Below the pieces are notes generated by a model. The model was given only the letters and a program-made list of their open reading frames with translations, did no database searches and had not been told where the DNA came from. DNA of 64,000 nt from Isoetes taiwanensis (Eukaryota > Streptophyta > Lycopodiopsida > Isoetales > Isoetaceae), in assembly GCA_021234155.1 (NCBI GenBank), contig JAJEKV010000003.1, positions 29,993,166 to 30,057,165 of the forward strand, read 5' to 3'. Of the stretch, positions 24,232-51,617 are shown one piece after another (within the stretch, counting starts at the first letter, position 1; every line of letters starts with the position of its first letter). Made by a program: the position numbers and the translations under genes.

Positions 24232-24430
<199 letters not shown>

Positions 24431-26990: not shown

Positions 26991-26994
26991 TATA

Positions 26995-28790: not shown

Positions 28791-28793
28791 AAG

Positions 28794-29195
28794 CATGTTT
28801 GAGCCACCTTGGCATGCCTGAGCCATCTTGGCATGTTGGAGCCCACATGGCATGTCTGAGCCACCTTGGCATGTTTGAGCCACCTTGGCATGTTGGAGCC
28901 TAGGTGGCATGTTGGAGCCCGTGTGGCATGTTTGAGCCACCGTGGCATGTTTGAGCCTAGGTGGCATGTTTGAGCCACCTTGGCATGTTGGAGCCTTGGT
29001 GGCAGTTGGAGCCCGCGTGGCATGTTTGAGCCACCTTGGCATGTTTGAGCCGAGTGGCATGTTGGAGCCTAGGTGGCATGTTGGGAGCCAATGTGGCATG
29101 TTTGAGCCACCTTGGCATGTTGGAGCCTAGGTGGCATGTTTTGAGCCACCCTGGCATGTTTGAGCCTAGGTGGCACGTTGGTGCTAGGTGGAGAG
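28794..29195 (-). repeat. 19-bp minisatellite, block 3, inverted
   Basis: The same monomer as blocks 1 and 2 in opposite orientation (TTTGAGCCACCTTGGCATG). It directly follows TTGCAAAAG of the large repeat unit, so it is an expansion within that unit. Confidence 0.93.
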
Positions 29196-30149
29196 CAACT
29201 CCCCGGGCTCTATTACAGAATTTGGTTATGCATTGATGTTGTACAATTTGGTAGTTGAAAACCATTGAATTGGTTTTTTGGTACCCATTGGCATGATGGG
29301 GTCAAAACAAGCCATAAGTCTTTTCCATACGAAGCAACAAGTCAAATCCTTGACCTAATGCCCTGGAGGATTACTCCGGGCAAGGGAAGACAATAAGATA
29401 CTACACAAACATAACTATACCCTATCGGGGGACTTACCACCAAATACGAATACCTATTGAGAGTTACCACCAAAAGTTGACATTAAGCAAGGACGAAGGC
29501 CCCTTTTAGTAACAGAAAACTTATTTAATTTCTTAAAGTTCCCTCTATTCTATCCCTTACCAAATTCCTCTACCGAAAACTCCCAAGGTAGTTCTATTCC
29601 TTGCTTTATCATTTTTTTGCCAAAAAACTCCTAGTCATCATGTCTACGTCACTACAATTTGCCAATGTCATCCAATGAAAAATCAAAGATGTACATCTTT
29701 TCATTTTTGGCCTAGTCAGAACTTGACCTTGCTGACTTGGCATGCCATGTCACCAGTCACATGTGGCATGTTATGATAACAAAGAATTTTATACACTTTT
29801 GGTAGTAAATGACCAGGTTAATCTTTGTACAAAGGGGTTTTCTAGGTCAAAAAATAGGAAATGGAACAATTTAGTCGAGCAGATCAAAAGGAGATGACAA
29901 ATGATGGCAGAAATGGGAAGATGAAGCAAAAAAGCATAAATCAATGAATATAATGGAGAACTCAATTAATGGTTTGGTCACACGTGAAAAAGAAAATGAT
30001 AGTTTTATACAACGCATGATAAAGCTGCATTATATAGAACGGTCGAGAAGAATGACCCAAAGTATGTTATGCAGTCTTTCGTTTCAGCCCACGTTCGCAT
30101 ATATTCTGGTCAATCTTAGGGTATGAAGTTTCAGAAGCCACCAACTTAG
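29196..30149. other. No supported gene
   Basis: Non-coding. TTGCTGACTTGGCATGCCAT near 29730 matches the left border of minisatellite block 1. Confidence 0.4.
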
Positions 30150-30560
30150 ATGGTTAGAGCCTTCATATCTCTCCTTGCCATAGGTTTAAGCCAAAATTTA
30201 AGATAAAATTTGGCTTCAGATAGATAATAATGTTACAATAACAAGGCTTGAGTGCCTACAACAACTCAATTGGAAAACATTGATCATGGGCGTTGTCATT
30301 ATTTTGTCAAAGCTAATTTGATTGAAAGAAAGAGAGAAGCAATTAAACCATATGCCGAGGAATAAAACATATGATGAAAAAAATGGTCTTATAGTGTGGT
30401 AAAACGATATACTATCCAACGGCTAGGATTAATAAGATAAATGGCCAAGATTGCGATCCTCGTCCTTTGTTCTTATTGGCTGTAGAATTGACGGCCGAGA
30501 TTAACGGGCAAATCACGATCCCGTTCTTCCCGCCTTGCCGCCTTGCCACCTTTGCTATGG
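30150..30560 (+). repeat. Dispersed repeat, copy A (copy B at 34680-34935)
   Basis: Shares with 34680-34935 the order AGCCAAAATT, AATAATGTT-CAA, then CAACGGCTAGGAT / CAACGGTTGAGAT, then AAATGGCCAAGATTGCGATC and CTTTGTTCTTATTGGC. Both copies precede pyrimidine-rich GCCGCCTTnCC stretches. It may be a duplicated promoter-type region or a retroelement end. Confidence 0.55.
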
Positions 30561-31182
30561 CGCCCCTTGCCGTTCTTCCTTCCTTGCTGACTTGCCGCCT
30601 TCTGTAGCAGCTCTCAGACTTCTGCCATCAGGAACTAGATGTTCCTACTTAGGGTGAAATCACGCCTCTGGCCGGCCAAGGATCAGGTTTTCGAGTATTG
30701 AAGATGTTTAAGAAACCAGTATCAGACTACTTGCCGAAGATCTTGGCCACCGCCAGCTGTAAAAGATCTGTGTGCCACATTGCTTATGAACATGGAAAGT
30801 CTAAAGATTAGGGTTCTTACGACAAAAATAGTTGTTGTGCATGCGATTCAGAATCGTTTGAAGGCTTCAACATTGGATTTGCAAGCAGGAACATCAAAGA
30901 AATCATTGTGATGCATTTCAAGAAGCGAAATCCGAACAGATTTGTGCCAGATTGGCTTTGAAAGATCAAATATTTTTGCTCTGATCAGGATTTTTTTTGT
31001 TTTGAAGAGGGCTTTTTTGGCTAGTATTGCAGACACAAGAGCAAAAATCCGACTGATCAGTAGCGGATTTTCTTCAGATGAAGCACCTAATCATAGTATT
31101 TTTCCCTAGAATAGGGCATCGCCATAGCTCCAACAAGGCAGTATGATTCTGACGTGGAAATTTAGGACGAGGCATTCAAAAA
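30561..31182. other. No supported gene
   Basis: A pyrimidine-rich CCTTGCCG stretch is followed by non-coding sequence. No motif-bearing frame. Confidence 0.35.
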
Positions 31183-31282
31183 ATCCTAATCCAAGTTGCA
31201 TGCCAGAAGTGAATCGGTACAGCTGGTTGCATATCCTAATCCAAGTTGCATGCTAGAAATGAATCGGTACAGCTGGTTGCAT
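31183..31282 (+). repeat. Two-copy tandem repeat, 50-bp period
   Basis: ATCCTAATCCAAGTTGCATG at 31183 and 31233, with the following GAATCGGTACAGCTGGTTGC also repeated. Confidence 0.9.
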
Positions 31283-31303
31283 ATCTGAAGGTAAACAGAA
31301 GCT

Positions 31304-31390
31304 TTCATTCCTGCTTTGCTATGCTGGTTAACTTCATTCCTGCTTTGCTATGCTGGTTAACTTCATTCCTGCTTTGATATGCTAGAGCAA
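31304..31390 (+). repeat. Three-copy tandem repeat, 29-bp period
   Basis: TTCATTCCTGCTTTGCTATG begins at 31304 and 31333, with a third copy, slightly changed, at 31362. Confidence 0.9.
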
Positions 31391-32269
31391 CAGAAGATAA
31401 ACAAGAGAAGGTTCGTAGGCTTTCTGTTTCTCTTTTTGCTTTGATCATATGGTATGTGAAGTTTGTTTCCGAGCTGAATTCAGGCTTTGATTCCCTGTTT
31501 GATATGAAACAAAGAGGGTTTTTTGACTGCATGCATTCAGGGTTGAATGCCCTTTATTGATTCATGCTTGCTTTGTGTGCTGGATTTCGCACCTCCTTTT
31601 TAGATTGTATATTGCATAGATAGCTTGCTTTGTGTGCATTTGGATTTTTACTTATCTTAGCTTTCACATTATTTCTGGCGTTTACATTTTCTTATAAACT
31701 TGAAGCTTACTTGTGCAATGAAAGTTTAATTTGAGATTCAATGAATAGCTCCGAAAAGGAGCTAAGAGAGTTAATAACTGCATGTATCAATGCTTGCAGG
31801 GCTTTCAGGCATCGTAAGTCTCAAAGGCATAACACAACACAACAGCGTATGTTTTGGCTTTGGCTGCTTCGATTTGTGCAAAGACCCTACAAGGACAAAT
31901 CATTTGGACGCTTAAGAACCTTGTTTGAGGTGTTTCAGAAGCTTCGCTTTGGTAATGAGGCCTTTTTCATACACTATTTTATATGTATAAAGATCTGTTG
32001 TTAACTAAAGGATTTGGTGTTTCGAGTTATTTACAAGTTACTAACATGCATTCAAATGTATTCAAATTGATGCTAGGTGAACCCAACAGCATACCTAAAA
32101 GACAAGAAAATTCAAAATCATTCTAATGACGGAAAGGATCATTGGGCTTCGTTCTGCCCGGTCCTCCAATCAAAGCATGCCACATGGCAATTTTTCTTTA
32201 CTTGAAAAGAGACCAAGAACATATGAAGAACATGAGCGACGCCCAGCGACTGCTTCAACGGATCTACGC
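31391..32269. other. Unassigned; one exon-like ORF
   Basis: A plus-strand frame at 31741-31954 (SSEKELRELITACINACRAF, then RHRKSQRHN) ends near a TTTG|GTAATG donor and could be a first exon. I do not recognise it. Confidence 0.25.
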
Positions 32270-32341
32270 TGCATTCAGACATTTTTACCCTTCATTCGGA
32301 GTTTTTTTACCCTACATTCAGAAATTTTTACCCCGCATTCA
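32270..32341 (+). repeat. Three-copy tandem repeat, about 24-bp period
   Basis: GCATTCAGACATTTTTACCC and two diverged copies follow one another. Confidence 0.75.
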
Positions 32342-32380
32342 GCTGCAGAACAAAGCCCAAATGATCCTTTGCGTTATGCC

Positions 32381-32477
32381 AAAGGCCCCTTGGGCTGTTT
32401 TCTGGCCTGTCAAGGGGGCCTCCGCACTTCACGCGTCGGCCCCCTTTCCAGGTTAGAAAACAGCCCAAGGGGCCTTT
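32381..32477. repeat. 40-bp inverted repeat with short loop
   Basis: Arms 32381-32420 and 32438-32477 (outer part AAAGGCCCCTTGGGCTGTTT) pair with a few mismatches around a 17-base loop. Resembles a hairpin MITE or a non-coding RNA foldback. Confidence 0.8.
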
Positions 32478-33479
32478 CCCTTATACTGAAGTGGTATTAA
32501 TGACTAAAGTGGTATGGAAAACGAAATGGAAATAACATTTAACAAAGATCTAATCTTTTGAACATTTACATTAATGTGAGAATTTGGATTTCAATTTAAC
32601 AATATAATGCTTTATGGACTTGTTAATATAATGCTTTATGGACTTGTTTGGGTTCGATTCCCAAAACGCTTTATTAAAATAAACAAATATGCCTTCTTGA
32701 TATTAATTAGTTAATAATAAATACTATTTTATCTTTTTTTTTAATGTGTGCCATGTGTCAATATTTGATTTGTTATTACATTTTAGAAACAATACCTTGT
32801 TTTTCCTACCTGTAATGATAATGCTTTTTAAAGTATGCCACGTGTCCATATTTGATTAGCTAGAATAATATTTTTATTTAAAAGTGTCAATATCTTATTA
32901 GTTAAACAACTACATTAGAAACTCACGTTTTTTCTACATGTTATAATATTATTTTTTACATGTCCTTATTTTAGGAAAACAATAGTTAAATTTCAATAAC
33001 ACATGTAGTATTTCGTAAATAAAAAAAAAGCCATGCATGATTTCTTTTAATTTTGTAAAAACAACACTTGAAACGACGTGTCCATATTGAGAAAAAGAAT
33101 ACTTGAAAACATCATTTTTCTATTTCCTACGTGTTCTTTTCTTTGTAGTCCTTTATTTCTAGTGTTGTAATTTAGTTTTTCAGGTGTAGTAAAATTAAAA
33201 CCTACACGTGCTATTTTAAAGATAAACATCGCATGGTTCCACAAAAAACAACAGTGAAAAAAAAAGTACACGTTGACAAAAATTCACAAAAACTATGTCA
33301 ATTTTTTCTACGCGTAGATTTTTCTGCCAAAAGACCACCGTGGAAATTTCTGCCAAAAAACCACTGTCTCTTTGTGCAAATCCGGATAAACAGGCCGCGT
33401 GGATTTTTGGGGCCATTTTGGTGTTGTTTTTGGCATAAAACAACACTTCCGTACAACTAAAAAACAACTATGGACCAAA
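32478..33479. repeat. AT-rich, ACAAC-rich repetitive DNA
   Basis: Contains a 31-bp duplication (ATAATGCTTTATGGACTTGT at about 32605 and 32630) and, from about 32940, many AAACAACA, CTTGAAAAC and ACACGTG pieces. The same vocabulary occurs at 35980-36316 and 45331-45700. The right border, GGACCAAAAATTGGGGTCAG, resembles the one near 45677 (GGACCCAGTTTTGGGGTGG), so these may be copies of one AT-rich element. Confidence 0.5.
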
Positions 33480-33784
33480 AATTGGGGTCAGTGTGCTGCA
33501 ATGTAGAGTGTTCGTGTTTCTTTCGTTGCAAAAACATATAACTTGGTCTCTAAGGTAATTTTGCCATTCCAGATGATATGGCGAAGTCAATTCTCCATTC
33601 TGGAGCCTTTGTACTCCTCGAATGACAAACCACTTAGGTTTCTACACAGTCGCCTGCAGGACGCTTCACGGTTTGATATGTTCTCTCGGACCGATCTTGG
33701 ATTTTTTTGAACCTATCTGAAGCAGGTTACTTGAACGCCCAATTCGATGGTCAGATAGGGGAACCGAGCTCCGGGAGGGGGGTT
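33480..33784 (+). repeat. Fragment of the ~1.1-kb repeat family
   Basis: Carries the segments TGCAATGTAGAG, AACTTGGTCTCTAAGGTAAT, GATATGGCGAAGTC, TTTGATATGTTCTC and GGTCAGATAGGGGAACCGAG in the same order as the 38.5-45.0 kb units. Confidence 0.85.
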
Positions 33785-34010: not shown

Positions 34011-34017
34011 TGCTAGA

Positions 34018-34132
34018 ACATGCCACCTTGGCTCAAACATGCCCTTAGACTCAAACATGCCACGTGGCTCAAAGTGGATACGTGGCTCAAACATGGCACA
34101 TCCACTCAAACATGGGACGTGGCTCAGGCATA
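34018..34132 (+). repeat. 19-bp minisatellite remnant
   Basis: About six diverged units related to CTCAAACATGCCACGTGG. Confidence 0.75.
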
Positions 34133-35979: not shown

Positions 35980-36029
35980 TCATGGCCTAAAACATCTTAG
36001 TGTCATTTCTTGGTTTAGAAAAACAACAC

Positions 36030-36316
36030 CTGAAAACATCTATTTTTATAAAACTACACGTGATTTCTATGTAAAACTATATATCAAAATTTGTTCTCAT
36101 CAGAAAAACAATACTAAAAACAACAGTTGTTTTGAGAAACCACATTTATCTTCAACACTTGAAAACAACATAGTTAAGAGCAAAAATTAGAAAACTACGT
36201 GTAGTTTCTAGCAAAATCGGACGAAATTCTCTACGTGGTTTTTTAGTGTTGTTTTTTTGCGATACAACAGTTAAAAATAACACGTGGACGTTTTAAGTTT
36301 ATTAAAAACCACATAT
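36030..36316. repeat. Left flank of the CACTA insertion: interrupted AT-rich repeat
   Basis: ACAAC-rich DNA ending ATTAAAAACCACATAT at 36316. The same text continues without interruption at 45414-45440, showing what the target looked like before insertion. Confidence 0.7.
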
Positions 36317-36328
36317 CACAACAAGAAA

Positions 36329-36534
36329 AGGGTCATTTAGCGACGTCTATAGTGACGTCTATGCGACGTCTGACGGCGTCGCCGACGCGTCGCCGCGACG
36401 ATCGTCGTTGCGACACGTCGCGATGCGGCGTGCGTCGCCGCATGCGACGCCGGCGGCGTCACTCGGGCGTCAGCGCGAGGCGTGACTCGAGACGTCGCAT
36501 GGGGCGTGGCGTCCGCGTGCGGCGTGGTGTAACG
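36329..36534 (+). repeat. CACTA subterminal block, left
   Basis: Dense GACGTC, GCGACG and GGCGTC motifs in a GC-rich 200-bp block, followed by an A run of about 32 bases. Probably transposase binding sites. Confidence 0.75.
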
Positions 36535-36540
36535 AAAAAA

Positions 36541-36574
<34 letters not shown>

Positions 36575-36582
36575 AAAGAATT

Positions 36583-37147
36583 TTAATAGTTAGTTACAAT
36601 ATCATATACAAGAGGCAAGAGGCGAGTAGTGGCTATCTTTACGTGTTCCCTGTTAGGGGAAAACCCGTATAGCCAATTCTATAATAATACGACCAATATT
36701 AGACAATGACATTGAAAGTTAACGTGAACTAAGAGTTTATAGCACTTACGAATCTATGTAAAAGCCTTTTTTACCGCCGAACCCAAGTGAGATGGAATTG
36801 TTTGTTTGAAGTTGCCTTGGCGAACCGTGAGGCGATGTTTTTCTTGGAATCCTTTGCACGTTCGAAAGTGATCTGATTGCAAGGAATACAACATGACAAG
36901 TTAAATGTCTTATTTCGAATTGAACGAATGGCAACAAATAACAAATACCTTGATATCTTCCTTATGGACAGATTAAGTGGTTTAGGGACCTTTGACCAAT
37001 CGCCTCCCAATTTTTTGGCATTCGACTTCAATTTTGCAATCACTCTTTGCCTTTTCTATAAATCGATAGATTAACACAAAACAAAAGAAAAAATAAGACT
37101 ATGACTAGGTCATGTACCTTCTTTTTCGGGCGAGCTCCCCCCATCAT
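36583..37147 (-). CDS. Predicted four-exon gene for a small basic protein inside the CACTA element
   Basis: I do not recognise this protein. Four minus-strand exons join with GT-AG borders and consistent phases: 37118-37147 (MMGGARPKKK), 36949-37055 (KRQRVIAKLKSNAKKLGGDW then SKVPKPLNLSIRKISR), 36750-36872 (LSNVQRIPRKTSPHGSPRQL and SLGFGGKKGFYIDS) and 36583-36649 (EHVKIATTRLLPLVYDIVTN, then Y and TAA). Total is 327 nt, 108 residues, strongly basic at the N terminus with a KKKKRQR cluster like a nuclear signal. Introns are 62, 76 and 100 nt. CACTA elements often carry a small DNA-binding protein gene besides the transposase, or captured host exons, and either could apply. The prediction rests on splice signals and phase only. 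Alternative frames of exon 3 have a faint resemblance to CACTA-associated proteins, which I do not rely on. Confidence 0.4.
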
Positions 37148-37261
37148 CGAAATGAGCCCCTTCCAAATCTGGATTAGTCGGATTAAAAGCTAGAGTTGGC
37201 TAACATACGCTTTAGGGTTATAGGCTAGATTTGGCCACCTCTACCTAAGAATTACAAGAAA

Positions 37262-37550
37262 AGTTGACTTGGACCCGAACACACAGTCGTCTCCACTGTA
37301 GTGGAGCCTACCGCGTGCCCTTGAACAAGCCACTACAATTTTATTTTAAACCTAAAAATAACAAGTGGTCAGGGACTTGAACCCGGCACGTGGCCCTCTC
37401 CACTCTAGGTGGAGCCGGCCGTGCCCTTGAACAAGCCACTCCTTAACCTAGGAAAAATATATGATCGTAGTGAAGTGGACTTCAACCCGGGGTACATGGT
37501 CCTCCCCACTCTAGGTGGAGCCGACCCGCGTCCTTGAACAAGCCACTCCA
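37262..37550 (-). repeat. Three-copy tandem repeat, 106-bp period, tRNA/SINE-like
   Basis: CCTTGAACAAGCCACT recurs with a 106-base step (37319, 37425, 37531). Read on the minus strand each unit has GGAGTGGCTTGTTCAAGGG followed by GGTTCAAGTCC (or a close variant), the latter matching the pol III B box. The A box is weak. It may be a SINE-derived repeat. Confidence 0.6.
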
Positions 37551-38193
37551 TCAATTTTTTTTAACCTCGCTTAAAATTATAAAAATAAAATGCAAGCGAT
37601 CAACTTACCAAAAGAAGGACGTGTGTAACAAGATCCCGACGGGTCCAAATCGAAATAGAAAGCAACAAAGAGTTAGAAGAATAAGAACAACGGAAATCGA
37701 AGAAGAAACAAAAAAAAAAAAAAAGAAGATGAAAAAATAGTAAAACATGAAAGAAAAAAAATGAATGAATCAAAGAAGAAGAGAAGGGTGGGAGAAAGAA
37801 GAGAAGGGAAAAGAGGAGAAAAAAGAAATTAGGGGAAGAAAGAGAAGAATGGAAGAAATAAGAGAATGAAATGGAAGAAGATAGAAGAATGGAAGAATGG
37901 AAGAGTGAAATAAGGGAAGAATCAAGAAAGAAATGAGGAAAGAAGGAAAAAAGAAGAAGAATGAAGAAACAAGAAGAAGAAAAAAAAAAGGAAAGAGATA
38001 GAAAAAAAATTTGAAATCTACACTAAATCATTCAATCCAAAAACCATTCAATCCAAAACCATGATCTACTAACCTTAAAAAGAGTGCTTGCAAGTCGCTT
38101 CAAGGTCAGATACCCGAAGATCGCCCAAAATAGTCGATAGAAGGAAGCCTAGGAATGGTCCCGGAAAAGACGGCCCGCGGGACTGTAAAAAAC
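37551..38193. other. Purine-rich interior of the CACTA element
   Basis: Strongly A/G-biased strand (many GAAGAA and GAAAGAA words) between about 37600 and 38010. No gene recognised. Confidence 0.5.
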
Positions 38194-38346
38194 ACACGGC
38201 GTCGCATGCGACGTCGCGACGTCGCATGCGACGTAATTTTGAAATCGTATATACGATTTCAAAATCGTATATACGATTTCAAAATCGTATATACGGTTTA
38301 ACGTCGCATGCGACGTGTCCGCGACGTATTTTGTTATAGCGACGTC
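38194..38346 (+). repeat. Internal CGTCGCATGCGACG palindrome block
   Basis: Copies of the palindrome ACGTCGCATGCGACGT surround three copies of AAATCGTATATACGATTT-type palindromes with a 26-bp step. The ends resemble the subterminal blocks, so this may be the relic of an inner element end. Confidence 0.7.
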
Positions 38347-38483
38347 TAACACTTTTTAATTTTTTTGGTGCCTTTTTTTCATCTGATGGTCATGAAAGTT
38401 TGTCCTTATGCTAATTTGGACATTCCCGAGCCATATATGCAGTCAAAATCGCATTCCGGATTTAACCAATCTTCTATTGCTAC

Positions 38484-41400
38484 TACTTACGAATGTTTGA
38501 GCCTGGGGTGGCATGTTTGAGCCTGGGGTGGCGGTTTGATAAGTTCTCCCGGACGGATGTTGGATTTTTTTGGACCTTATCGAGACAGGGCCCTTGAACG
38601 AAGGATTCAACGGTCGGATAGGGGAACCGAGATCCGGAAGTGTGGTCTTTAGCGTCATCCCCCCCGGGAGCGCCGCCAGAAAGGTCGCCTTTGGAAACTT
38701 TTTGAGGCTCGCCTCCCGGTCCCGGACTCTCCCCTCTAATGAGGTGGCCTTGCAAGGTCCCCGGCCTTGTTTGATCCCGGCAAGTGTGCCGGCTCGGCGC
38801 CCAACAACAGCTGCCCTGGACCGTTCTAATGCAAACACTTTGATCTAAATCTTGTCCAGAAATTTTGAAAACTGGCCTCAGATGTTGGCGATAACTTAGG
38901 AAGCCTGCCGACAAAAATCAGAATTTAATTCCGTACTATGCATTAATTATGAATTTATGAATGTCTTGCTACCGCAAAAGTCGCCTTTTACTTCTAACCG
39001 CCACAACGGAGGAGTACAAATCCAAACTCCATTCCGCCGGTTCCCCTTGCTTCAGATTCTCAATCGCATCTTATCGGCCAAGTCCCAAGTGCAAAAGACC
39101 AAAACTCGGCACCCAAAACGCAAAACCATGCTAGAACCCGGCAACTCATAGGGTTTACGCTTTGGAGGCTCTATCCTTGTCGATTCGACTAGGACCTTGC
39201 CCGTGTCTTGACGTAGAGGGGTGGTGTTGATGCCGAACACGGACCCTAAAACCACCGAAGCGGCTTTTGCCCCAAAAGTCCTCTCCGGCCACCGGGCGAC
39301 GGACAGCAACTTCCCCTCTCCGAATCGTGATTCGGCTCGCCAATGGACTCGGAATGTCGACATTGTCCCGGGGACCAAGTTTCGCGGGCCGTAAGACCAC
39401 CTCTTCTCGAGGAAGCGTCAAACTATCTCATGTCCAACACACTTTCGTAGTCAATTGGCCTAGGAGGTGGTCAGAATCTCGCAAACGTGGGGCGTAAGTG
39501 TTTCTTTCTTTTTGCAAAACCGACCGTGCAACTTGGTCTCTAGGGTAATTTCGCCTCCCTGACGATGTGGCGAAGTCGAATCGTCATTCCGAGCCTCCGC
39601 AATGTCCGAACGACAAAACACTTTGGTTTCTACAAGGTCAACCCATGAACGCCATTTGTTTGATAAGTTCTCCCGGACGGATGTTGGATTTTGTTGGCCC
39701 TTATCGAGCCGGGGCCCTTGAAAGGATTCAACGGTCGGATAGGGGAACCGAGATCCGGAGTGTGGTCTTTAGCGTCGACCCCCCGGGAGCCGCCAGAAAG
39801 GCTACCTCGGGAAACTTTTTGGGGCTCGCCTCTTGGGGTTTGGACTCTCCCCTCTAATGAGACGGCCTTGCAAGGTCCTGGCCTTGTTTGACTTGGGCAA
39901 GTGTGCCCATTTCGGCTGCCCAACAACAGTCTGCCCTGACCGTTCTAATGCAAACACTTTGATCTAAACCTTGTCCGGAAATTTTGAAAACTGGCTCAGA
40001 TGTTGGCGATGACTTAGGAAGCCTGCTGACAAAAAAATCAGAATTTAATTCCGTACTATGCATTAATTACGAATTTATGAATGTCTTGCTACTTTGCAAA
40101 AGCTGCCCTTTACTTCTAAGCGCCACAACGGAGGAGTACAGATCCAAACTCCATTCCGTCCGGTTCCCTTGCTTTAGCGTTCTCAATCAGCATCTTATCG
40201 GCCAAGTCCCAAGTGCAAAGGACCAAAACTCGATATCCAAAACGCAAACCCTGCTAGAACCTGGCAACTCATAGGGTTTACGTTTCGGAGGCTCTATCCT
40301 TGTCAGATTCGACTAGGACCTTGCGCCGTGTCTTGACGTAGAGGGGGGGTGTTGACGCCAGAGCACGGACCCTAAAAACCACCTGGAAGCAGCTTGCCCC
40401 AAAAGTCCTCTCCCGAAGGCCCTGGCGACGGACGAGCAACTTCCCCTCTCCGGAATCGTGATTCGGCTCTGCCAATGGACTCGGAACGTCGACATTGCCC
40501 TGGGGACCAAGTTTCATGGCCAAAAGACCACCCCTTCTCGAGGTAGCGTCAAACTATCTCATGTCCAACACACTCGTAGTCAATTGGCCTAGGAGGTGGC
40601 TGTCGAATACTGCAACGTAGGGCGTAAGTGTTTCTTTCTTTTGCAAAACTGACCGTGCAACTTGGTCTCTAGGGTAATTTCGGCCTCCCGGACGATGTGG
40701 CGAAGTCGAATCGCCATTCCGGAGCCTCCGCAATGTCCGAACGACAAAACACTTTGGTTTCTACACGGTCGACCGCAGGACGCTTCGCGGTTTGATAAGT
40801 TCTCACGGACGGATGTTGGATTTTTTTGGACCTTATCGAGACAGGGCCCTTGAACGAAGGATTCAACGGTCGGATAGGGGAACCGAGATCCGGGAGTGTG
40901 GTCTTTAGCGTACGGCCCCCTGGGGGAGCGCTGCCAGGAAAGGCTGCCTCGGGAAACTTTTTGGGGCTCGCCTCCTGGGGTCCGGACTCTCCCCTCTAAT
41001 GAGGTGGCCTTGCAAGGTCCTGGCCTTGTTTGACTTGGGCAAGTGTGCCAGCTCGGCTGCCCAACAACAGGCTGCCCGGACCGTTCTAATGCAAACACTT
41101 TGATCTAAATCTTGTCCAGAAATTTTGAAAACTGGCCTGTATGTTGGCGATGACTTAGGAAGCCTGCTGACAAAAAATCAGAATTTAATTCCGTACTATG
41201 CATTAATTACGAATTTATGAATGTCTTGCTACTGCAAAAGCTGCCCTTTACTTCTAACTGCCACAACGGGAGGAGTACAGATCCAAACTCCATTCCGTCA
41301 GTTCCCCTTGCTTCGCATTCTCAACTGCATCTTATCGGCCAAGTCCCAAGTGCAAAAGACCAAAACTCGGCACCCAAAACGCAAACCCTGCTAGAACCTG

Positions 41401-44400
41401 GCAACTCATAGGGTTTACGTTTCGGAGGCTCTATCCTTGTCAGATTCGACTAGGACCTTGCGCCGTGTCTTGACGTAGAGGGGGGGTGTTGACGCCAGAG
41501 CACGGACCCTAAAAACCACCTGGAAGCAGCTTGCCCCAAAAGTCCTCTCCCGAAGGCCCTGGCGACGGACGAGCAACTTCCCCTCTCCGGAATCGTGATT
41601 CGGCTCTGCCAATGGACTCGGAACGTCGACATTGCCCTGGGGACCAAGTTTCATGGCCAAAAGACCACCCCTTCTCGAGGTAGCGTCAAACTATCTCATG
41701 TCCAACACACTCGTAGTCAATTGGCCTAGGAGGTGGCTGTCGAATACTGCAACGTAGGGCGTAAGTGTTTCTTTCTTTTGCAAAACTGACCGTGCAACTT
41801 GGTCTCTAGGGTAATTTCGGCCTCCCGGACGATGTGGCGAAGTCGAATCGCCATTCCGGAGCCTCCGCAATGTCCGAACGACAAAACACTTTGGTTTCTA
41901 CACGGTCGACCGCAGGACGCTTCGCGGTTTGATAAGTTCTCACGGACGGATGTTGGATTTTTTTGGACCTTATCGAGACAGGGCCCTTGAACGAAGGATT
42001 CAACGGTCGGATAGGGGAACCGAGATCCGGGAGTGTGGTCTTTAGCGTACGGCCCCCCGGGGGAGCGCTGCCAGGAAAGGCTGCCTCGGGAAACTTTTTG
42101 GGGCTCGCCTCCTGGGGTCCGGACTCTCCCCTCTAATGAGGTGGCCTTGCAAGGTCCTGGCCTTGTTTGACTTGGGCAAGTGTGCCAGCTCGGCTGCCCA
42201 ACAACAGGCTGCCCGGACCGTTCTAATGCAAACACTTTGATCTAAATCTTGTCCAGAAATTTTGAAAACTGGCCTGTATGTTGGCGATGACTTAGGAAGC
42301 CTGCTGACAAAAAATCAGAATTTAATTCCGTACTATGCATTAATTACGAATTTATGAATGTCTTGCTACTGCAAAAGCTGCCCTTCACTTCTAACTGCCA
42401 CAACGGGAGGAGTACAGATCCAAACTCCATTCCGTCAGTTCCCCTTGCTTTGCATTCTCAACTGCATCTTATCGGCCAAGTCCCAAGTGCAAAGGACCAA
42501 AACTCGATATCCAAAACGCAAACCCTGCTAGAACCTGGCAACTCATAGGGTTTACTTTTCGGAGGCTCTATCCTTGTCAGATTCGACTAGGACCTTGCGC
42601 CGTGTCTTGACGTAGAGGGGTGGTGTTGACGCCAGAGCACGGACCGTAAAAACCACCTGGAAGCAGCTTGCCCCAAAAGTCCTCTCCCGAAGGCCCTGGC
42701 GACGGAGAAGCAACTTCCCCTCTCCGGAATCGTGATTCGGCTCTGCCAATGGACTCGGAATGTCGACATTGTCCTGGGGACCAAGTTTCGTGGCCAGAAG
42801 ACCACCTCTTCTCGAGGAAGGCTCTGCCAATGGACTCGAAACATCGATATTGCCATGGGGACCAAGTTTCATGGCCAGAAGGCCATCCCTTCTCGAGGAA
42901 GCGTCAAACTATCTCATGTCCAACACACTCGTAGTCAATTGGCCTACGAGGTGGCTGTCGAATACTGCAACGTAGGGCGTAAGTGTTTCTTTCTTTTGCA
43001 AAAATGATCGTGCAACTTGTTCTCTAGGGTAATTTCGGCCTCCCGGACGATGTGGCGAAGTCGAATCGCCATTCCGGAGCCTCTGCAATGTCCGAACGAC
43101 AAAACACTTTGGTTTCTACATGGTCGACCGCAGGACGCTTCACGGTTTGATAAGTTCTCCCGGACGGATGTTGGATTTTGTTGGACCTTATCGAGCCAGG
43201 GCCCTTGAACGAAGGATTCAATGGTCGGATAGGGGAACCGAGATCCGGGAGTGTGGTCTTTAGCGTCACGGCCCCCTGGGCCGCCAGAAAGGCTACCTCG
43301 GGAAACTTTTTGGGGCTCGCCTCTTGGGGTTCAGACTCTCCCCTCTAATGAGACGGCCTTGCAAGGTCCTGGCCTTGTTTGACTTGGGCAAGGGTGCCAG
43401 CTCGGCTGCCCAACAACAGGCTGCCCGGACCGTTCTAATGCAAACACTTTGATCTAAACCTTGTCCGGAAATTTTAAAACTGGCCTCAGATGTTGGCGAT
43501 GACTTAGGAAGCCTCACGACAAAAAATCAGAATTTAATTCCGTACTATGCATTAATTACGAATTTATGAATGTCTTGCTACTTTGCAAAAGCCGCCCTTT
43601 ACTTCTAACCGCCACAACGGGAGGAGTACATCCAAACTCCATTCCGTCGGTTCCCCTTGCTTCGCGTTCTCAACTGCATCTTATCGGCCAAGTCCCAAGT
43701 GCAAAAGACCAAAACTCGGCACCCAAAATGCAAACCCTGCTAGAACCTAGCAACTCATAGGGTTTACGTTTCGGAGGCTCTATCCTTGTCAGATTCGACT
43801 AGGACCTTGCGCCGTGTCTTGACGTAGAGGGGGGGTGTTGACACCGGAAAGGGGACCCTAAAACCATCCTGGCGCAAATTGCCCCAAAAAGTCCTCTCCC
43901 GAAGGCCCTGGCGACGGACGGGCAACTTCCCCTCTCCGGAATCATGATTCGGCTCTGCCAATGGACTCGAAACGTCGATATTGCCATGGGGACCAAGTTT
44001 CATGGCCAGAAGGCCATCCCTTCTCGAGGAAGCGTCAAACTATCTCATGTCCAACACACTCGTAGTCAATTGGCCTACGAGGTGGCTGTCGAATACTGCA
44101 ACGTAGGGCGTAAGTGTTTCTTTCTTTTGCAAAAATGATCGTGCAACTTGTTCTCTAGGGTAATTTCGGCCTCTCGGACGATGTGGCGGTCGGATAGGGG
44201 AACCGAGATCCGGGAGTGTGGTCTTTAGCGTACGGCCCTCCCGGGAGCCGCCAGAAAGGTCGCATCGGAAACTTTTGTGGCTCGCCTCTTGGGGTTAGGA
44301 CTCTCCCCTCTAATGAGGCGGCCTTGCAAGGTCCTGGCCTTGTTTGACTTGGGCAAGTGTGCCCATTTCTACCGCCAACAACAGTCGCCTTGACCGTATT

Positions 44401-45020
44401 TAATGCAAACACTTTGATCTAAACCTTGTCCGGAAATTTTGAAAACTGCATGTACATTGGCGATGACTTAGGAAGCCTCACGACAAAAAATCAGAATTTA
44501 ATTCCTTACTATGCATTAATTACGAATTTATGAATGTCTTGCTACTGCCCAACAACAAGCTGCCTAGACCGTTCCAATGCTACCTATTTGATCAGAACTT
44601 TATCCAGAAATTCTAAAAATTTGCCTGTATGCTGGGGATGACCTAGGAAGCCAACTGACAAAAAATCAGAATTTAATTCCATACCATGCATTAATTACGA
44701 ATTTATGAAGCATGAATGCAAAAGAACGCATAACTAAAAAATTCTGCATCGAAAAAAGGTGGAATTTTGACAAGCGGTGCAACGTGCCGGTGCGGACATG
44801 AGAAAAACATTTCACTAGGATATGCAGTGTTGGTGCACGATGAAATAGCTCCGAGTCTTCCAGAGCTCACATGCTGCCACAAAAGTTCTCTTACGAAGGC
44901 CCTGGCGATGGACGAGCAATTTCCCCTCTCCAAAACCATGATTTGGCTCTTCCAATGGACTCAGAATATTGACATTACCCTGGGGACCAACTTTCGTGGC
45001 CAGAAGACCACCCTTGTTCT
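38484..45020. repeat. Tandem array of about 1.13-kb units (about six copies)
   Basis: The marker TTTGATAAGTTCTC begins units at about 38526, 39658, 40791, 41928 and 43143. A sixth copy with this marker deleted starts near 44185 and fades after 44560. Spacing is 1132-1137 bp, except for the unit enlarged to about 1215 by a 78-bp internal duplication near 42820-42900. Units 3 and 4 differ at only a handful of positions. Long open frames on both strands recur with the unit but have no family motif, so I read them as by-products. Two minisatellite monomers (TTTGAGCCTGGGGTGGC) sit at the left border. Diverged relatives lie at 22.9, 27-28.8 and 33.5 kb. Confidence 0.92.
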
Positions 45021-45037
45021 CCAAAAAGAACAAAGTA

Positions 45038-45312
45038 CACTAGACGTCCAGCAGACGTCCCGCGCGACGTCACGTCGCACGCGACGTCACGTCGCACGCG
45101 ACGTCACGTCGCACAAAAGTGACGCACGCGATGCGACGTGGTCGTAGACGTGGCGCACCTGGCATGACAGACTTGCCACGTCACGGTGTCAGACGTCGCA
45201 CCACACGTCGCATGCGACGTGTCTGCGACGTGACGTCGCATTGACGTCGCATGGTGACGTTATTTGCGACGTCACGTCGCACAGACGTCGCAAGCCCACG
45301 TCGCTAAATGTC
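45038..45312 (-). repeat. CACTA subterminal block, right
   Basis: Dense ACGTCGCACGCGACGT-like palindromes and GACGTC motifs, the counterpart of the left block. Confidence 0.8.
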
Positions 45313-45330
45313 CATTCTCTTGTTGTGTAT

Positions 45331-45720
45331 CTACTTTTTAGGAAAAAAACACTTGAAAACTACACTTGAAAACTACAGCTAACTTAAAAAACAACATGTG
45401 TGGACATTTTAAGTTTATTAAAAACCACATATCTACTTTTTAGGAAAAAAACACTTGAAAACTACAGCTAACTTTAAAAACAACATGTAGAAATACATGT
45501 TAATTTCTACGCGTAGATAACTTTAACAAAATTCGCGTAGACTTTTCACAAAAAAAACTACACGTATAAAAGTTTGACTAAAAACTACACGTTGTTTCTA
45601 GCAAATCCGGACAAAAAACAACACATAGTTTTTTGGTGTTGTTTTTCTAGCAAAAAAGACACTGAAAAACAACATGTGGACCCAGTTTTGGGGTGGTAGT
45701 GTGTCTTCAGAAACCTGCCA
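45331..45720. repeat. Right flank of the CACTA insertion, with intact target copy
   Basis: AT-rich DNA with a tandem duplication: CTACTTTTTAGGAAAAAAAC occurs directly after the element (45331) and again from about 45433. The second copy is preceded by TTTATTAAAAACCACATAT as in the left flank of the element. The block ends near GGTGGTAGTGTG (about 45700). Confidence 0.8.
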
Positions 45721-45795: not shown

Positions 45796-46459
45796 TGAAA
45801 GTGTTGCCCTCCTCGAATCTTGGTGTTGATACCGACCCTTGAGACATATTTGCCCTCCAAGTCTTTGCAAACTCCACATCCATTCCTCTGGCCCAGGAGA
45901 TTATGTCCTTGTCCACACCTATTTCGACCATTTTTCGAATGATCCTAGCCTCGTCTATGGCATTATCCCCGTCATGCTGAGGTCCAGAATGTGCTGCTGC
46001 ATAATTGACCCAACCTTGTGTGTCCAATCTCATGGAATTCCCAGGGCCAATATCAGTGTGTGGCTGTGACTCACCCTCCCTGTTGACCAAGTCCCAGGTC
46101 TTCAATGGTGACCTGATTGTGCTAATGGAGTTTGGGACAGGTCTGACCAGAGGCAGGAAGCCTTCTATGCTAACATCCTACACACCAGCAATGTCTCCCG
46201 AGCATAAGTGGGTATCTTCCAAGCTGCACATAACATGCACTTCCTCTTCACTGTCATGGGCAATTGCATGATCACTCATAACCGGTGTGGTCAATCCACT
46301 AACCTGCTGACCTTCAGGTTCCATGGTGAATGATGTTTTCACTATTGGATCCCTGATTGGACTCAACCCTTGCCTTATTCTCATTCTGTTTCTAACCTCT
46401 AACCTTTTGCTTCTCACCTCATCACTCATTGGCATCTGGAAGCTAAAGACTGCAGCCAC
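45796..46459 (-). pseudogene. C-terminal extension ORF of the jerky-type element
   Basis: A minus-strand frame of about 220 codons runs from 46459 to a TNQ|GTGCGT donor-like site at about 45788, broken by one in-frame stop at 46178. It contains MPMSDEVRSKRLEVRNRMRI and DEARIIRKMVEIGVDKDIIS. No domain is recognised. It overlaps the end of the transposase frame in another frame, so it could be the true C terminus reached through a frameshift, or a host exon. Being acidic and serine-rich in part, it does not look like a catalytic domain. Confidence 0.4.
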
Positions 46460-48309
46460 TCTGAAATGCCACTGGGGTACATGAGTGCTCTAAGTCTAGC
46501 AGTAGAGGCCTCAAATTCTGCTTCAGCCTTCTTCCTATTTTCCCTTTCTTCCCTATTCTGTTGAGCTCTCTTGGCAGCCTCTTGCCTTTCCAATTTCCTT
46601 CTTGTAGTTTCGAGTTTCCTGGCAGCAACTTGCTCATTCCTTAGTCTTGCAGCCTCAGCCCTTCTAGCCCTCTCAGCAGCCAAGGCCTCACATAAGCCAT
46701 CACTAGAGATGTGCACCCTTCCACTTAGGTCTGGGATTAAACCACGATTCCTTGCCCTCGTGGCCTGAGACTGTTGCATGCAGGCCTGTGATGTCCTCAC
46801 GTCTGTAGGGAGCTGCACACATGCATGTGCTGTTTTCATGTCACCAGATGGTACCACATGCTGCTGTGAGGGTCTTAAGGTTGCATCAATGGCCTCATGG
46901 TCCCCATCTCGTGCGCCTTCATCGTAAGATGGATGCACATCATGGCTTACAATGTCCACATTGTGAGGTACATGTTCATGCCCACCAATAGGCTGCTGGC
47001 CACCTTGCTCACCAGCTGGGCGTGGTGCCTCCCATAACTGTTGCAAGTCAACCATGTTGAATTGCTCCAATTCCTCATCATCCAAGTTGGCTGCATCTTC
47101 TTGGCCTCCACTTTGCATAACCTGCTCTATAAGCACTCTACCAAACCTGTCACTTTCCTGGCCTGGCTTAACCTTGTCTGAGTTGAATGGCCAAATCCCA
47201 GTTGCTCTAAACCCTGCCTTGATGTTGCTAGGTGTCAGCCCTGATTCAATGGCCTGTGAAATGAGCTCTGCAATGTCCTCCCTCTTCGGCTCTGTCCTCC
47301 CTTTGCTAACCATGTAAGAAGATCTCAATCTTTTGAAGGCTACCTTGAATGGTGCAAAACATGCAACATCCAAAGGTTGTAACCTATGTGATGTGTGGGG
47401 TGGGAGTAGGGCAAAATGTATGCCCATTTCCTTAGCTGCCAAAATAACTTCCAGCTCCACATGGCTGCCATGGCCATCCAATATTATCAGGTGTGGCCTT
47501 GATGGAGATACTCCACCAGGAACCCTAGCAACAAAATATGACAACCAAGACTTGAACAATTCTGTTGTCATCCAGGCCGAGGGCTGGATAGCTTGAATTG
47601 CCAACTCCTCACATCTGGCAATGTTATCTTGCCTCATCCGAGTACCCCTGAAGATGTATAAATTAGGTATCTTAAACCCTTCAGCATTTACACATTCCCC
47701 ATTCCCTATTGTTCATGACAACCTCATTTACTCTGTTCTCCCCTTTCCTACCTATGATCTTCATGCCCTTCACCTTCCCAGCTTGGATGCCTGTCTCATC
47801 AGCATTCCAGATCCTAGAGGCCGGGAAATCGAACTCGTCGTAGATTTGTCTCAGACCAACATAGAAGTTATCCAGATTCTCTTGTGTCATAGCGCGAGCC
47901 TGAGCAATATCTAATGTCTCTGCACTTCTTAATGCAACCTCTGGATGCCTTTGTTTGAACAGCTTCCACCATTTACTCCTAGGAACCCCGCGAAAGTATG
48001 AGTTGCCCCCCTCCATAGCCATCTGTGCTGCCCTTTCTTTGACAGCCGAGAGAGTAGCCCCCATTCCCTGCACGGCCCTGGAGAGTGCCCAGTTGACTAA
48101 CTCTTCCTCTTGTAGAGTCGTTAGAATTTGTGGATTACCAGTCTGCTTATGAGTTATGCGGCCATACAGCCAGTCCCTTATTGTTGATTCCGGGATTCCA
48201 GACCTTCTAGATGCCTCTCTAACAGATATACCATACTCACTTACCTCATCCAGATGTCTGCCATTTGATCTTCAGTCCACTGCCGATGTTTGCTTGGCCT
48301 TCTTGGCAT
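46426..48309 (-). pseudogene. Jerky/pogo-type DDE transposase, frameshifted
   Basis: Transposases of the Tc1/mariner superfamily (pogo/jerky branch) have an N-terminal helix-turn-helix DNA-binding part and a DDE_1 catalytic domain. The start at 48309 gives MPRRPSKHRQWTEDQMADIW. After a frame break near 48248 comes the helix-turn-helix (VSEYGISVREASRRSGIPES then TIRDWLYG). Next come KWWKLFKQRHPEVALR and RIWNADETGIQ (first Asp), and the frame breaks near 47700, where several codons are missing. The second large frame (403 codons) has LIILDGHGSHVE (second Asp) and HRLQPLDVACFAPFK (third Asp), then GFRATGIWPFN and a coiled, Arg/Glu/Ala-rich tail. All three catalytic aspartates survive, but at least two frameshifts make it inactive. 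Confidence 0.88.
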
Positions 48310-49799: not shown

Positions 49800-51617
49800 T
49801 TAATTAGAATCAAATTTTACAAAATATAGCCTCTCAGGCTTTCCATTACCAAAGTTAACTCTTCTGCCTGTAACTTCAATGGTACTCTTTCCAAAATACA
49901 TCTTCACTTCAATCTTCCGCTTCTTGTCTAGATGCAAATCCTGAGAAATATCCATGGCATAGCTATTTTCCTTAACGCACCCTTTGTCTGTTGTATAAGC
50001 TGGACACTGTTCTCTATGGGAAGAAAACATACTAAATATTAGTTCCGTTTGCTGATGATCAGAAGGATGAAAGGTATGCTTATGGGAATAATCAACCGGA
50101 ATAGACTGATCTTTTTCCACATATGTGCGGAAGACGTTAAGACATTTCAGTTTCCCATCATCACTTATCCGCATGTGGCTTGGAGGATCGCCATGTTGAA
50201 AACCTCTCCAGATTCTTATCCCATAGTATTTCTTTGATCTTCTAGCCATGACAAGGTCTGATTGGAAACCAAATTTAACTGCACCATGTAAAATCGCACT
50301 TGCTGGGCTAACCGGAACAATAATCCTGTCCACGTTCCCTCCAAACTCCTCCTTTATTTCGTTTACCATGTAACTATTTTCTGACAAGCCTCCAACTATC
50401 AGTAAACACTTGCATTTATCTTTTCCTTGTAAGGATCCCAACTGTTTGTGGATCAGATCAAGTGTCTTCTCTACTTCTGTATCAAAAAATTCCCGCATTG
50501 CTTCTGGAGATAGATCCAGTTCATCATATTTATCATCTGGTTTATAAATCCGCTTTGATCGATCCGATTTCTTCCAAGCAGATGCAAGCTTTGATGGTAA
50601 CTCCCAACCAATTCCATCCGGCGAGCTAGAACCTGTAAAGCAGCATTTTTTATCAAGCCACCACTTTAAAACATTGAGAAAATATTTGGGGTTCTGCAAT
50701 ATAAAATCCTTGAAACAGTCAATTTCCTGGTGCAGATAATTAAAAAAATTCTCGTCCACAAATGTACCACCGCCCATTTCACCACAGCTTATTGCAGCTT
50801 CTTGAACTTGACAAAGCTTGGAATTTACTACTTGGTGCAGAACTAAATCAATGGTGCCGCCGCCTATATCCACAACCATGAACTTATCACCAGATTTTAG
50901 AGGAACCTCGTGCAATTTTTCCTGGCAATACATAGAAGCAGCTTCTGGTTCAAGGACTATGCGTAGAGGATGTGGGCTGGAGCCATTGTCGTTGCAGTAT
51001 TTCCCTTGGATCATTCCCGCCATTTCACAGCATATTTTCATTCTCTGCTTTGCATTTTCATCCCATATTGCAGGCACTGTTACACACCACTGAACATTAG
51101 ATTTCTTAAAATGATTGCCATACTTTTCCTTGAGATGTTCCAAAGCAAATTCAGACATGCCCCTCAGATAGTCGGAAATCAGTTTCTCTGCCGACAAACC
51201 ATAAGGAAGATTTTCAGCAACATAATCAGGCGCTAGCATAAGCTTGAACTTGGTAATAAAATAGCCGACATTATTTTGCTTCCCGGGTATCTGCACAGTC
51301 TGGATAAAACCATCTTGCTTCGTATTCGGGCCACAGATTTCGTAGGTTTTAGTTTGGCCCGGTTTAAGGTGCTGCAGAGCTTTGGTATACTGAACCAGAG
51401 CAGGCCATCCCCATGCTTGGAGCTCTAAGGAGATCCCAGATCCGGCAGGGGCATAGAAAAGGCTTGACTGTGTCTTGCAGTATAACCTTCCTCCTGCTTC
51501 ATCCCAAGAGGGCCAATTCTCAATACATTGAACCTCTGTAGGATTAGCACAATGGGCAAAGGAGAAACCGGAGTAAGTAGTTCCAAAATCTACACCAACA
51601 ACTACTGCCGGATCCAT
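49800..51617 (-). CDS. HSP70-superfamily protein of the HSPA12 type, intact, intronless
   Basis: An uninterrupted 605-codon frame. HSPA12 proteins are atypical HSP70s: they keep the actin-like ATPase fold and lack the canonical substrate-binding domain. Visible motifs are VGVDFGTTYSGF (residues 8-18, phosphate loop 1), VTVPAIWDENAKQRM (about 179-193), LRIVLEPEAASMYC (218-231), VVDIGGGTIDLVL (248-260, phosphate loop 2), GEMGGGTFVDENF (279-291) and LLIVGGLSENSYM (405-417, adenosine motif), then PVSPASAILHGAVKFG (435-450). The last 150 residues are a beta-rich tail without the HSP70 lid. The Met at 51617 directly precedes the VVVGVDFG strand, as in the family, so the start is convincing. A partial copy of its 3' end lies 0.7 kb downstream. 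The lack of introns could be ancestral or indicate a retrocopy. The client and role in plants are not known to me. Confidence 0.93.
   Translation of the reverse strand: MDPAVVVGVDFGTTYSGFSFAHCANPTEVQCIENWPSWDEAGGRLYCKTQSSLFYAPAGSGISLELQAWGWPALVQYTKALQHLKPGQTKTYEICGPNTKQDGFIQTVQIPGKQNNVGYFITKFKLMLAPDYVAENLPYGLSAEKLISDYLRGMSEFALEHLKEKYGNHFKKSNVQWCVTVPAIWDENAKQRMKICCEMAGMIQGKYCNDNGSSPHPLRIVLEPEAASMYCQEKLHEVPLKSGDKFMVVDIGGGTIDLVLHQVVNSKLCQVQEAAISCGEMGGGTFVDENFFNYLHQEIDCFKDFILQNPKYFLNVLKWWLDKKCCFTGSSSPDGIGWELPSKLASAWKKSDRSKRIYKPDDKYDELDLSPEAMREFFDTEVEKTLDLIHKQLGSLQGKDKCKCLLIVGGLSENSYMVNEIKEEFGGNVDRIIVPVSPASAILHGAVKFGFQSDLVMARRSKKYYGIRIWRGFQHGDPPSHMRISDDGKLKCLNVFRTYVEKDQSIPVDYSHKHTFHPSDHQQTELIFSMFSSHREQCPAYTTDKGCVKENSYAMDISQDLHLDKKRKIEVKMYFGKSTIEVTGRRVNFGNGKPERLYFVKFDSN

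What the first reader, a model, noticed from the sequence alone, without database searches (positions are those of the whole stretch)
36317..45327. Nine-kilobase CACTA-like element that carries a 6.5-kb satellite array, with its empty target copy next door
Seen: terminal inverted repeats matching at 26 of 29 positions, TAT on both sides, and a paralogous uninterrupted target (CCACATATCTACTTTTTAGG at about 45424-45443) within 120 bp of the right end. Most of the interior is a tandem array of about 1.13-kb units. Known: CACTA elements make 3-bp duplications, and their ends bind transposase through short subterminal repeats. Inference: the element moves, or moved, a satellite, which would seed new arrays elsewhere. 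The termini start CACAA, not CACTA, so they may form a separate subfamily.
Basis: partly seen in the sequence, partly recalled or inferred. Interest (0 to 1): 0.75.

Follow-up and report, generated by a model that had tools for sequence, protein, structure and literature searches.

The report
Transposon family that carries a satellite
A jumping-gene family in what looks like a quillwort genome carries a built-in array of 1.1-kb repeats and has taken that array to many places, in transposase-bearing and stripped-down versions alike; a few similar cases are known, so it is a clear example more than a new kind of system.

Summary
Window 36317-45327 is a 9,011-bp element: inverted ends match at 26 of 29, TAT lies on both sides, and an uninterrupted paralogous target is at 45425. 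About 6.5 kb inside is a tandem array of 1.13-kb units.

It is one copy of a mobile family. Of 21 array loci in the rows shown by the unit search, 19 have both ends, and 16 of those 19 have identical 3-bp flanks. Exact 29-bp ends occur 191 (left) and 257 (right) times, against 0 for reversed controls.

The right end is shared with longer, transposase-bearing relatives. The one complete copy, C977:1027757-1050847 (23.1 kb, flanks GTC/GTC), has a tnp2 domain, and the same satellite between that domain and the other end. Arrays of two more transposase loci have a unit consensus 82.9% identical to ours. A 1,705-bp copy without any full unit also has matching flanks.

Best reading: a non-autonomous EnSpm/CACTA-type element with CACAA ends and an inherited, apparently noncoding satellite interior. 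CACTA elements with satellites are known in quinoa. Seeding of free arrays was not shown.

The parts
36317..45327 (.). whole element, 9,011 bp
   Evidence: TIRs, TSD and local uninterrupted paralogue
36314..36316 (.). left copy of the target-site duplication, TAT
45328..45330 (.). right copy of the target-site duplication, TAT
36317..36345 (+). left terminal inverted repeat (29 bp); 191 exact copies in the genome
45299..45327 (-). right terminal inverted repeat (29 bp); 257 exact copies in the genome; shared with transposase-bearing relatives, where the transposase domain reads away from this end
36340..36500 (+). left subterminal GACGTC/GCGACG repeats
45043..45290 (-). right subterminal GACGTC/GCGACG repeats
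36567..38456 (+). left interior module of about 1.9 kb; 90-94% identical in the 10 other full copies fetched; in C932 and C1025 only short patches match it
38208..38346 (.). internal cluster of the same GACGTC repeats just left of the array
38493..38532 (+). two copies of a 20-bp motif (TGTTTGAGCC...) at the left edge of the array; TTTGAGCC is at this place in 11 of 11 full array-type copies
38531..45013 (+). satellite array of about 1.13-kb units
38534..39643 (+). array unit 1 (8.1% from the unit consensus)
39658..40787 (+). array unit 2 (3.6% from the unit consensus), used as genome query
40790..41924 (+). array unit 3 (0.9% from the unit consensus)
41927..44188 (+). truncated units: 41927-42820, 42820-43141, 43145-44188
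44187..45013 (+). degenerate right-hand unit pieces; the same order recurs in the 10 other full copies
45425..45444 (+). uninterrupted paralogous target site

Best explanation
The element is a non-autonomous copy of an EnSpm/CACTA-type DNA transposon family with CACAA ends, in a genome that is almost certainly Isoetes taiwanensis. A tnp2-type transposase made by longer relatives with the same right end (one complete one, 23.1 kb) very probably acts on its ends and moves it, leaving 3-bp duplications. The 1.13-kb satellite is an inherited interior module: in the relatives it sits between the transposase region and the opposite end. It travels with the element, so transposition has placed ready-made arrays at 34 or more loci (21, 13 others). 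The number of units per copy changes (1 to 7 full units in 11 copies), most likely by unequal exchange or slippage during repair. Shown: ends, flanks, pairing, shared right end, shared satellite, a mobile derivative without full units. Inferred: that these relatives supply the enzyme, how unit number changes, and any role of the array.
For: Same architecture in 10 of 10 further full array loci: left end, about 2.2 kb, units, fixed right-hand pieces, right end (C1078 has an extra copy of the left module inside, C1057 mostly broken units). Identical 3-bp flanks in 16 of 19 copies with both ends, with varied flank sequences. Exact ends 191 and 257 against 0 and 0 for reversed controls; 25 inward pairs against 4 and 1 controls. 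Of 20 right-end copies sampled, 13 run into the array-type interior, 6 into the interior type of C1025/C932, 1 into something else. C977:1027757-1050847 is complete at 23,091 bp with GTC/GTC, has a PF02992 match at 1043436 and array units from about 350 bp inside its left end. C932 pieces match PF02992 (2e-68) and DUF4218 (4e-11), and DUF4216 below its cut-off (2e-4). The unit consensus of the C932/C1025 arrays is 922 of 1,112 identical to ours. The 1,705-bp copy C1026:12872900-12874604 has no full unit, keeps a unit remnant of about 140 bp, and has GAA/GAA.
Against: Of 19 copies with both ends, 3 lack identical flanks (C1075, C1028 at 14.78 Mb, C941 at 4.05 Mb). Of 81 left ends on C1-C1025, 56 have no exact right end facing them within 30 kb (mismatched, lost or unassembled partners are not counted). 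C778 (21.8 kb) has flanks TAA and TAG. No intact transposase gene was shown: the frames of C932 and C1025 are broken up, by decay or by nanopore errors, and that of C977 was not read. The left end of C932 and C1025 was not found in the 20 kb fetched. The left interior module is not explained by the transposase-bearing copies read. Best-hit searches favour close relatives.
Confidence: 0.9

Rival explanations
1. The satellite was free in the genome first and was captured into a CACTA-type element, perhaps more than once; the element is a vehicle and the array has no old tie to the family.
For: Diverged unit pieces (70-81%) lie outside this element in the window, including one that spans a unit-to-unit junction (22930-23221 plus 33496-33783) and others inside a second CACTA-like element. 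A second array at C1025:15198286-15207916 has no ends located. Capture is the authors' reading of the quinoa case (PMC8978399, section 15).
Against: The array sits between transposase domain and left end in C977 and beyond the transposase region in C932 and C1025, with the same unit in the same orientation relative to the right end. 19 of the 21 array loci listed for the best unit matches are inside paired ends. This argues for an old association; it does not exclude a capture before the two classes split.
Confidence: 0.3
2. The array is an ordinary satellite, and the element ends are chance or unrelated sequence at its edges.
For: Only the general point that satellites often contain short inverted repeats.
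Against: Chance expectation about 1.5e-5 for ends plus duplication; the same ends bound the array at 19 of 21 loci.
Confidence: 0.01
3. Collapse or misjoining in a nanopore assembly created similar-looking arrays at many loci; unit number and much of the unit divergence are technical.
For: The matching published assembly used nanopore reads polished with racon and pilon (PMC8566536, passages). Units of one element differ as much from each other as from units of other elements: 92.4% against 92.3% identity.
Against: Different flanking sequence with 3-bp duplications at 16 loci. Shared derived variants are commoner within an element than between elements, 0.092 against 0.065, 0 of 2000 permutations. 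In the same array some units differ from the consensus by 0.9-1.4% and others by 6-8.5%.
Confidence: 0.1

Closest known systems
CACTA-like element (Jozin group) of Chenopodium quinoa with an internal satDNA array (PMC8978399; abstract and sections 6, 10, 15 read)
   Same: CACTA-type element of plants; subterminal repeats; satellite array of several kb inside the element, on the 3' side of the coding part; Transposase_21, DUF4218 and DUF4216 in the group's ORF 1.
   Different: There: monomer 171 bp, 32.5 copies in the described element, array also inside elements in three further scaffolds, TIRs given begin CACTA, transposase-bearing copies. Here: monomer 1.13 kb, 1-7 full units in 11 full array-type copies, ends CACAA, exact ends in the hundreds, array present in transposase-bearing and stripped copies.
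CficCl-61-40 satellite of Chenopodium, derived from the tnp2 region of a CACTA-like element (PMC7320549; abstract and outline read)
   Same: Satellite and CACTA element linked in one lineage.
   Different: There the start monomer (about 40 bp) comes from transposase coding sequence; here the unit shows no codon signal and the 3 unit frames scanned have no Pfam match.
ATENSPM / ENSAT1 of Arabidopsis (one table row in PMC9659126, passages seen)
   Same: En/Spm-like element as source of a satellite.
   Different: Listed there as derived from the 5' UTR; not compared by sequence here.
Tetris and TIR-220 of Drosophila virilis (PMC4079207; abstract and outline read)
   Same: Non-autonomous DNA transposon that carries internal tandem repeats and is thought to be moved by an autonomous relative.
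   Different: Foldback-like element; repeats of about 220 bp lie in the TIRs, and longer satellite-like arrays of them were reported there.

Membership tests
EnSpm/CACTA superfamily | 3-bp target-site duplication | tested here: met
   16 of 19 array-bearing copies with both ends; also C977 GTC, C1028 (10.5 Mb) AGG, C1026 (12.87 Mb) GAA; not C778
EnSpm/CACTA superfamily | TIRs that begin exactly CACTA | tested here: not met
   Both ends begin CACAA. PMC8978399 section 6 asks for an intact CACTA motif, so by that rule it is not a CACTA in the strict sense. I call it CACTA-type with CACAA ends; the class rests on the transposase of its relatives.
EnSpm/CACTA superfamily | tnp2-type transposase (PF02992) with DUF4218 and DUF4216 in copies that share the ends | tested here: met
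   C932 (shares the right end; left end not found): PF02992 2e-68, DUF4218 4e-11, DUF4216 2e-4 below its curated cut-off. C977 (both ends) and C1025: PF02992, other domains not scanned. In the window element 8 of the 43 open frames listed were scanned, without a match above a curated cut-off.
EnSpm/CACTA superfamily | Subterminal short repeats in direct and inverted order | tested here: met
   GACGTC/GCGACG clusters at both ends; inverted self-match at the right end
EnSpm/CACTA superfamily | Cut-and-paste movement by the transposase | not testable with these tools
   Needs an excision assay or population insertion data
Satellite-carrying transposon | Array wholly inside the ends, recurring in independent insertions | tested here: met
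   19 of 21 array loci with both ends; flanks differ between loci
Satellite-carrying transposon | Free arrays outside the element seeded by it | tested here: inconclusive
   Diverged unit pieces and one array without located ends exist; direction of descent not tested; a wider unit survey did not complete

The most novel reading that the evidence does not exclude
The satellite is a working part of this transposon lineage and not baggage: it has been kept, apparently noncoding but 83% alike at consensus level, beyond the transposase region and again in the stripped-down copies, and related unit pieces sit in a second CACTA-like element with different ends in the same window. It could set chromatin state or transcription of the element, and it would make the family a standing source of satellite monomers for the genome.
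Probability: 0.2. Interest if true: 0.75.

Novelty: new variant of a known kind. Interest (0 to 1): 0.5.

Why it matters
How satellites get from one place to many is an old question. Here the vehicle, its transposase-bearing relatives, array-bearing insertions with varied flanks and one derivative without full units can all be read in one assembled genome, so dispersal by transposition can be separated from later change in unit number. The 1,705-bp copy suggests that the array is not needed in cis for transposition, which sharpens the question why it is kept.

Tried and rejected
Coding unit: rejected. No Pfam match in the 3 unit frames scanned; no clear codon-position pattern among 47 units or between the two consensus units.

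RNA genes: no tRNA in the window. The 16 Rfam matches in 36000-45600 (E up to 0.5) were all below gathering scores.

Position-specific descent of units: not seen. First-first identity 92.8%, last-last 91.7%, first-last 92.2%.

Prior art: CACTA with satellite DNA and tandem repeats, 69 papers, 25 listed; narrower searches 3 papers and 17 papers. CACAA ends: searches for 'CMCWR' (a motif I recalled) and for CACTA with CACAA and 'terminal inverted repeats' found 0 papers. Isoetes or lycophyte with CACTA: 38 papers held at least 3 of the 4 terms, 20 listed, none by its title about such elements; of these I saw only passages of PMC8566536. PMC7004042 was seen as a listing only.

Not answered: a survey with a divergent unit (window:38534-39643) and a search with the left end of the second element (window:23220-23339) met only 'busy' replies.

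Full report
WHAT WAS CLAIMED AND WHAT IS THERE. The left end starts at 36317 and the right end stops at 45327. The two ends match at 26 of 29 positions, both beginning CACAACAAGA, with TAT on each side. The expected number of such inverted pairs within 20 kb in a sequence of this composition is about 0.0009, or about 1.5e-5 with matching 3-bp flanks. Joined without the element and one TAT, the flanks align to 45388-45488 with 4 mismatches and 2 gaps. The target was one member of a local duplicated stretch, so the uninterrupted copy is a paralogue and not an allele. Between the ends lie an interior module of about 1.9 kb, a short cluster of GACGTC repeats, two copies of a 20-bp motif, and the array (38531 to about 45013) of roughly 1.13-kb units, of which 3 are full.

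GENOME. The window lies in an assembly of 1,658,258,908 bases in 1,110 contigs. The Isoetes taiwanensis paper gives 1658.30 Mb, 204 scaffolds plus 909 contigs (PMC8566536, passages). I infer that species; no call names it.

THE ENDS DEFINE A FAMILY. A search with the first 104 bp gave 40 scored matches out of 484 candidates, all starting at position 1. A search with the last 120 bp gave 40 full-length matches at 98-100% out of 720 candidates; only the best are scored, so this shows the most similar part of the family. Among the 11 full array-type copies the last 120 bp are on average 88.4% identical, lowest 74.3%. Exact 29-bp left ends number 191 and right ends 257; the same letters read backwards give 0. 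The listings show only the first 100 of each, so pairing was done on contigs C1 to C1025, where both lists are complete; 19 listed left ends and 4 listed right ends on later contigs were dropped. Of 81 left ends, 25 have one of the 96 right ends facing them within 30 kb, at sizes from 4,545 to 23,091 bp; same-strand pairs number 4 and outward-facing pairs 1. The other 56 left ends have no exact partner in that range.

THE ARRAY IS A STANDING PART OF IT. The unit search returned rows from 21 loci, the window included (22 candidates scored of 6,758, row listing cut). I fetched 10 of these in full: with the window, 11 of 11 have both ends and the same order of parts. Sizes run from 5,724 to 11,358 bp and full units from 1 to 7. 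For the other 10 I fetched short stretches only: 8 have both ends, C1056 only a right end and C1100 only a left end in what was fetched; about 2 kb beside the first unit of C1056 was not fetched. Identical 3-bp flanks: 10 of 11 and 6 of 8, so 16 of 19; the three without are C1075, C1028 (14.78 Mb) and C941 (4.05 Mb). In C1078 the left module recurs inside the array, and C1057 has mostly broken units.

TRANSPOSASE-BEARING RELATIVES. PF02992 (tnp2) matches 167 times (150 scored of 2,311 candidates, row listing cut). Comparing by eye the listed right ends (40, the first 100 of 257) with the listed transposase matches, 7 right ends have one 6.5-7.4 kb inward, reading away from the end: C932, C1025, C977, C723, C908, C996 and C1026 (3.7 Mb). 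I read C932 and C1025. Their right ends are 98.3% and 100% identical to ours over 120 bp. Beyond about 142 and 175 bp they leave our sequence, and from about 10.8 kb inward they hold an array of the same unit in the same orientation relative to that end. Separate open-frame pieces of C932 match Transposase_21 (2e-68), DUF4218 (4e-11), DUF4216 (2e-4, below cut-off), a B3 domain (5e-10) and weakly SET (0.001, below cut-off); 4 of the 10 pieces had no match, and one had only a chance-level one. The frames are broken up, so no working gene is claimed. Their left ends were not found in 20 kb. C977:1027757-1050847, in contrast, has both ends exact, GTC on both sides, 23,091 bp, the tnp2 domain (model positions 1-102 of 213), and units from about 350 bp inside its left end, over about 2.7 kb; its middle was not fetched. 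C1028:10511576-10528169 (16.6 kb) has AGG/AGG; C778:631455-653292 (21.8 kb) has TAA and TAG; no listed transposase match falls inside these two. A 286-bp segment that follows the array in C1025 has 40 scored matches of 913 candidates at 96-100%; by eye, seven listed right ends have one in the same orientation 2.9-22.5 kb inward: C1028, C920, C963, C1056 (7.39 Mb), C1027, C908 (22.1 Mb) and C1025. Of 20 right-end copies sampled over 1 kb (20 of the 40), 13 continue into our array-type interior, 6 into the interior of C1025/C932 type, and 1 (C1035) into neither for long.

IS THE ARRAY NEEDED? C1026:12872900-12874604 is 1,705 bp long, made of our positions 1-1068 and 8363-9011. It has no full unit, only a unit remnant of about 140 bp near the right end, and has GAA/GAA. 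A copy without the array proper has therefore inserted; it is one case.

UNIT EVOLUTION. 47 full units from 11 elements: 92.4% identity within elements, 92.3% between. In 9 of 11 elements at least one full unit lies within 2.1% of the consensus, while others differ by up to 10.3%. Shared derived variants are somewhat commoner within an element (0.092 against 0.065; 0 of 2000 permutations reach it), so some local homogenisation occurs. No clear codon pattern is seen. The consensus of 9 units from C932 and C1025 is 922 of 1,112 identical to ours, 82.9%. The assembly is from polished nanopore reads, so part of the divergence may be technical.

UNITS OUTSIDE THE ELEMENT. In the window, a stretch matching a unit pair across its junction (22930-23221 and 33496-33783, 70-81%) is interrupted by 23220-33495, a 10,276-bp insertion with ends CACACT[C/G]ACCCC (21 of 24) and CTG on both sides; with the insertion left out the flanks align through the unit consensus. 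Inside that insertion lie further unit pieces, the two longest in inverted order, next to 19-bp minisatellites. The same TTTGAGCC motif stands at the left edge of the array in 11 of 11 full array-type copies and about 150 bp from the array on the coding side in C1025, C932 and C977. The satellite is thus older and wider than this one element, and I cannot say in which direction it moved.

MECHANISM. Shown: discrete ends, duplications, paired ends, shared right end and shared satellite with transposase-bearing relatives, and a mobile derivative without full units. Inferred from established knowledge of En/Spm elements (recalled): transposase binding to the subterminal repeats, cut-and-paste movement, and gap repair that makes internal deletions and changes array length.

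COMPARISON. The closest published case I saw is C. quinoa, where a CACTA-like element holds 32.5 copies of a 171-bp satellite on the 3' side of its coding part (PMC8978399, sections 6, 10 and 15). This family differs in end motif, monomer length, presence of the array in both transposase-bearing and stripped copies, and copy number. The ends are not CACTA, so by the strict rule of that paper it is not a CACTA; by the transposase of its relatives it is EnSpm/CACTA-type.

VERDICT. Observation confirmed, reading supported; the seeding of free arrays is open.

Noticed in passing
window 23220-33495: A second, 10,276-bp CACTA-like insertion: ends CACACT[C/G]ACCCC matching 21 of 24, CTG on both sides, inserted into a degenerate pair of the same satellite units. 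Its end could not be searched in the genome.
   Followed up: partly
window 24879-26987, 28793-29179, 22409-22923, 34017-34126: Arrays of a 19-bp minisatellite (GGCTCAAACATGCCACGTG and its complement) beside pieces of the 1.13-kb unit, with a foldback-like arrangement around 27024-28792.
   Followed up: partly
L063 (C932:901100-911099), with L065 and L067: The transposase-bearing relative also holds a piece of a B3 DNA-binding domain and a weak SET match, perhaps captured host gene parts.
   Followed up: no
G000 C1025:15198286-15207916: A second array of the transposase-type unit lies about 12 kb from the first one at the same locus, with no ends located.
   Followed up: no
L027-L028 (C1078:112500-126500): One array-type copy contains a second copy of the 1.9-kb left module in the middle of its array, suggesting recombination between copies.
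   Followed up: no
window 46426-47712 (-) and 55082-56071 (+): Two open frames with DDE_1 domains (6e-22, 3e-6), the second with a Psq-type helix-turn-helix: pogo-like transposase remains, the class name by recall.
   Followed up: no
window 49800-51719 (-): A 639-codon open frame with an Hsp70-like domain (PF00012, 2.8e-8), looking like an HSPA12-type gene by recall.
   Followed up: no
window 61555-63762 (-): Reverse transcriptase open frame (RVT_1, 2.9e-31) with a weak zf-RVT match, probably a LINE.
   Followed up: no
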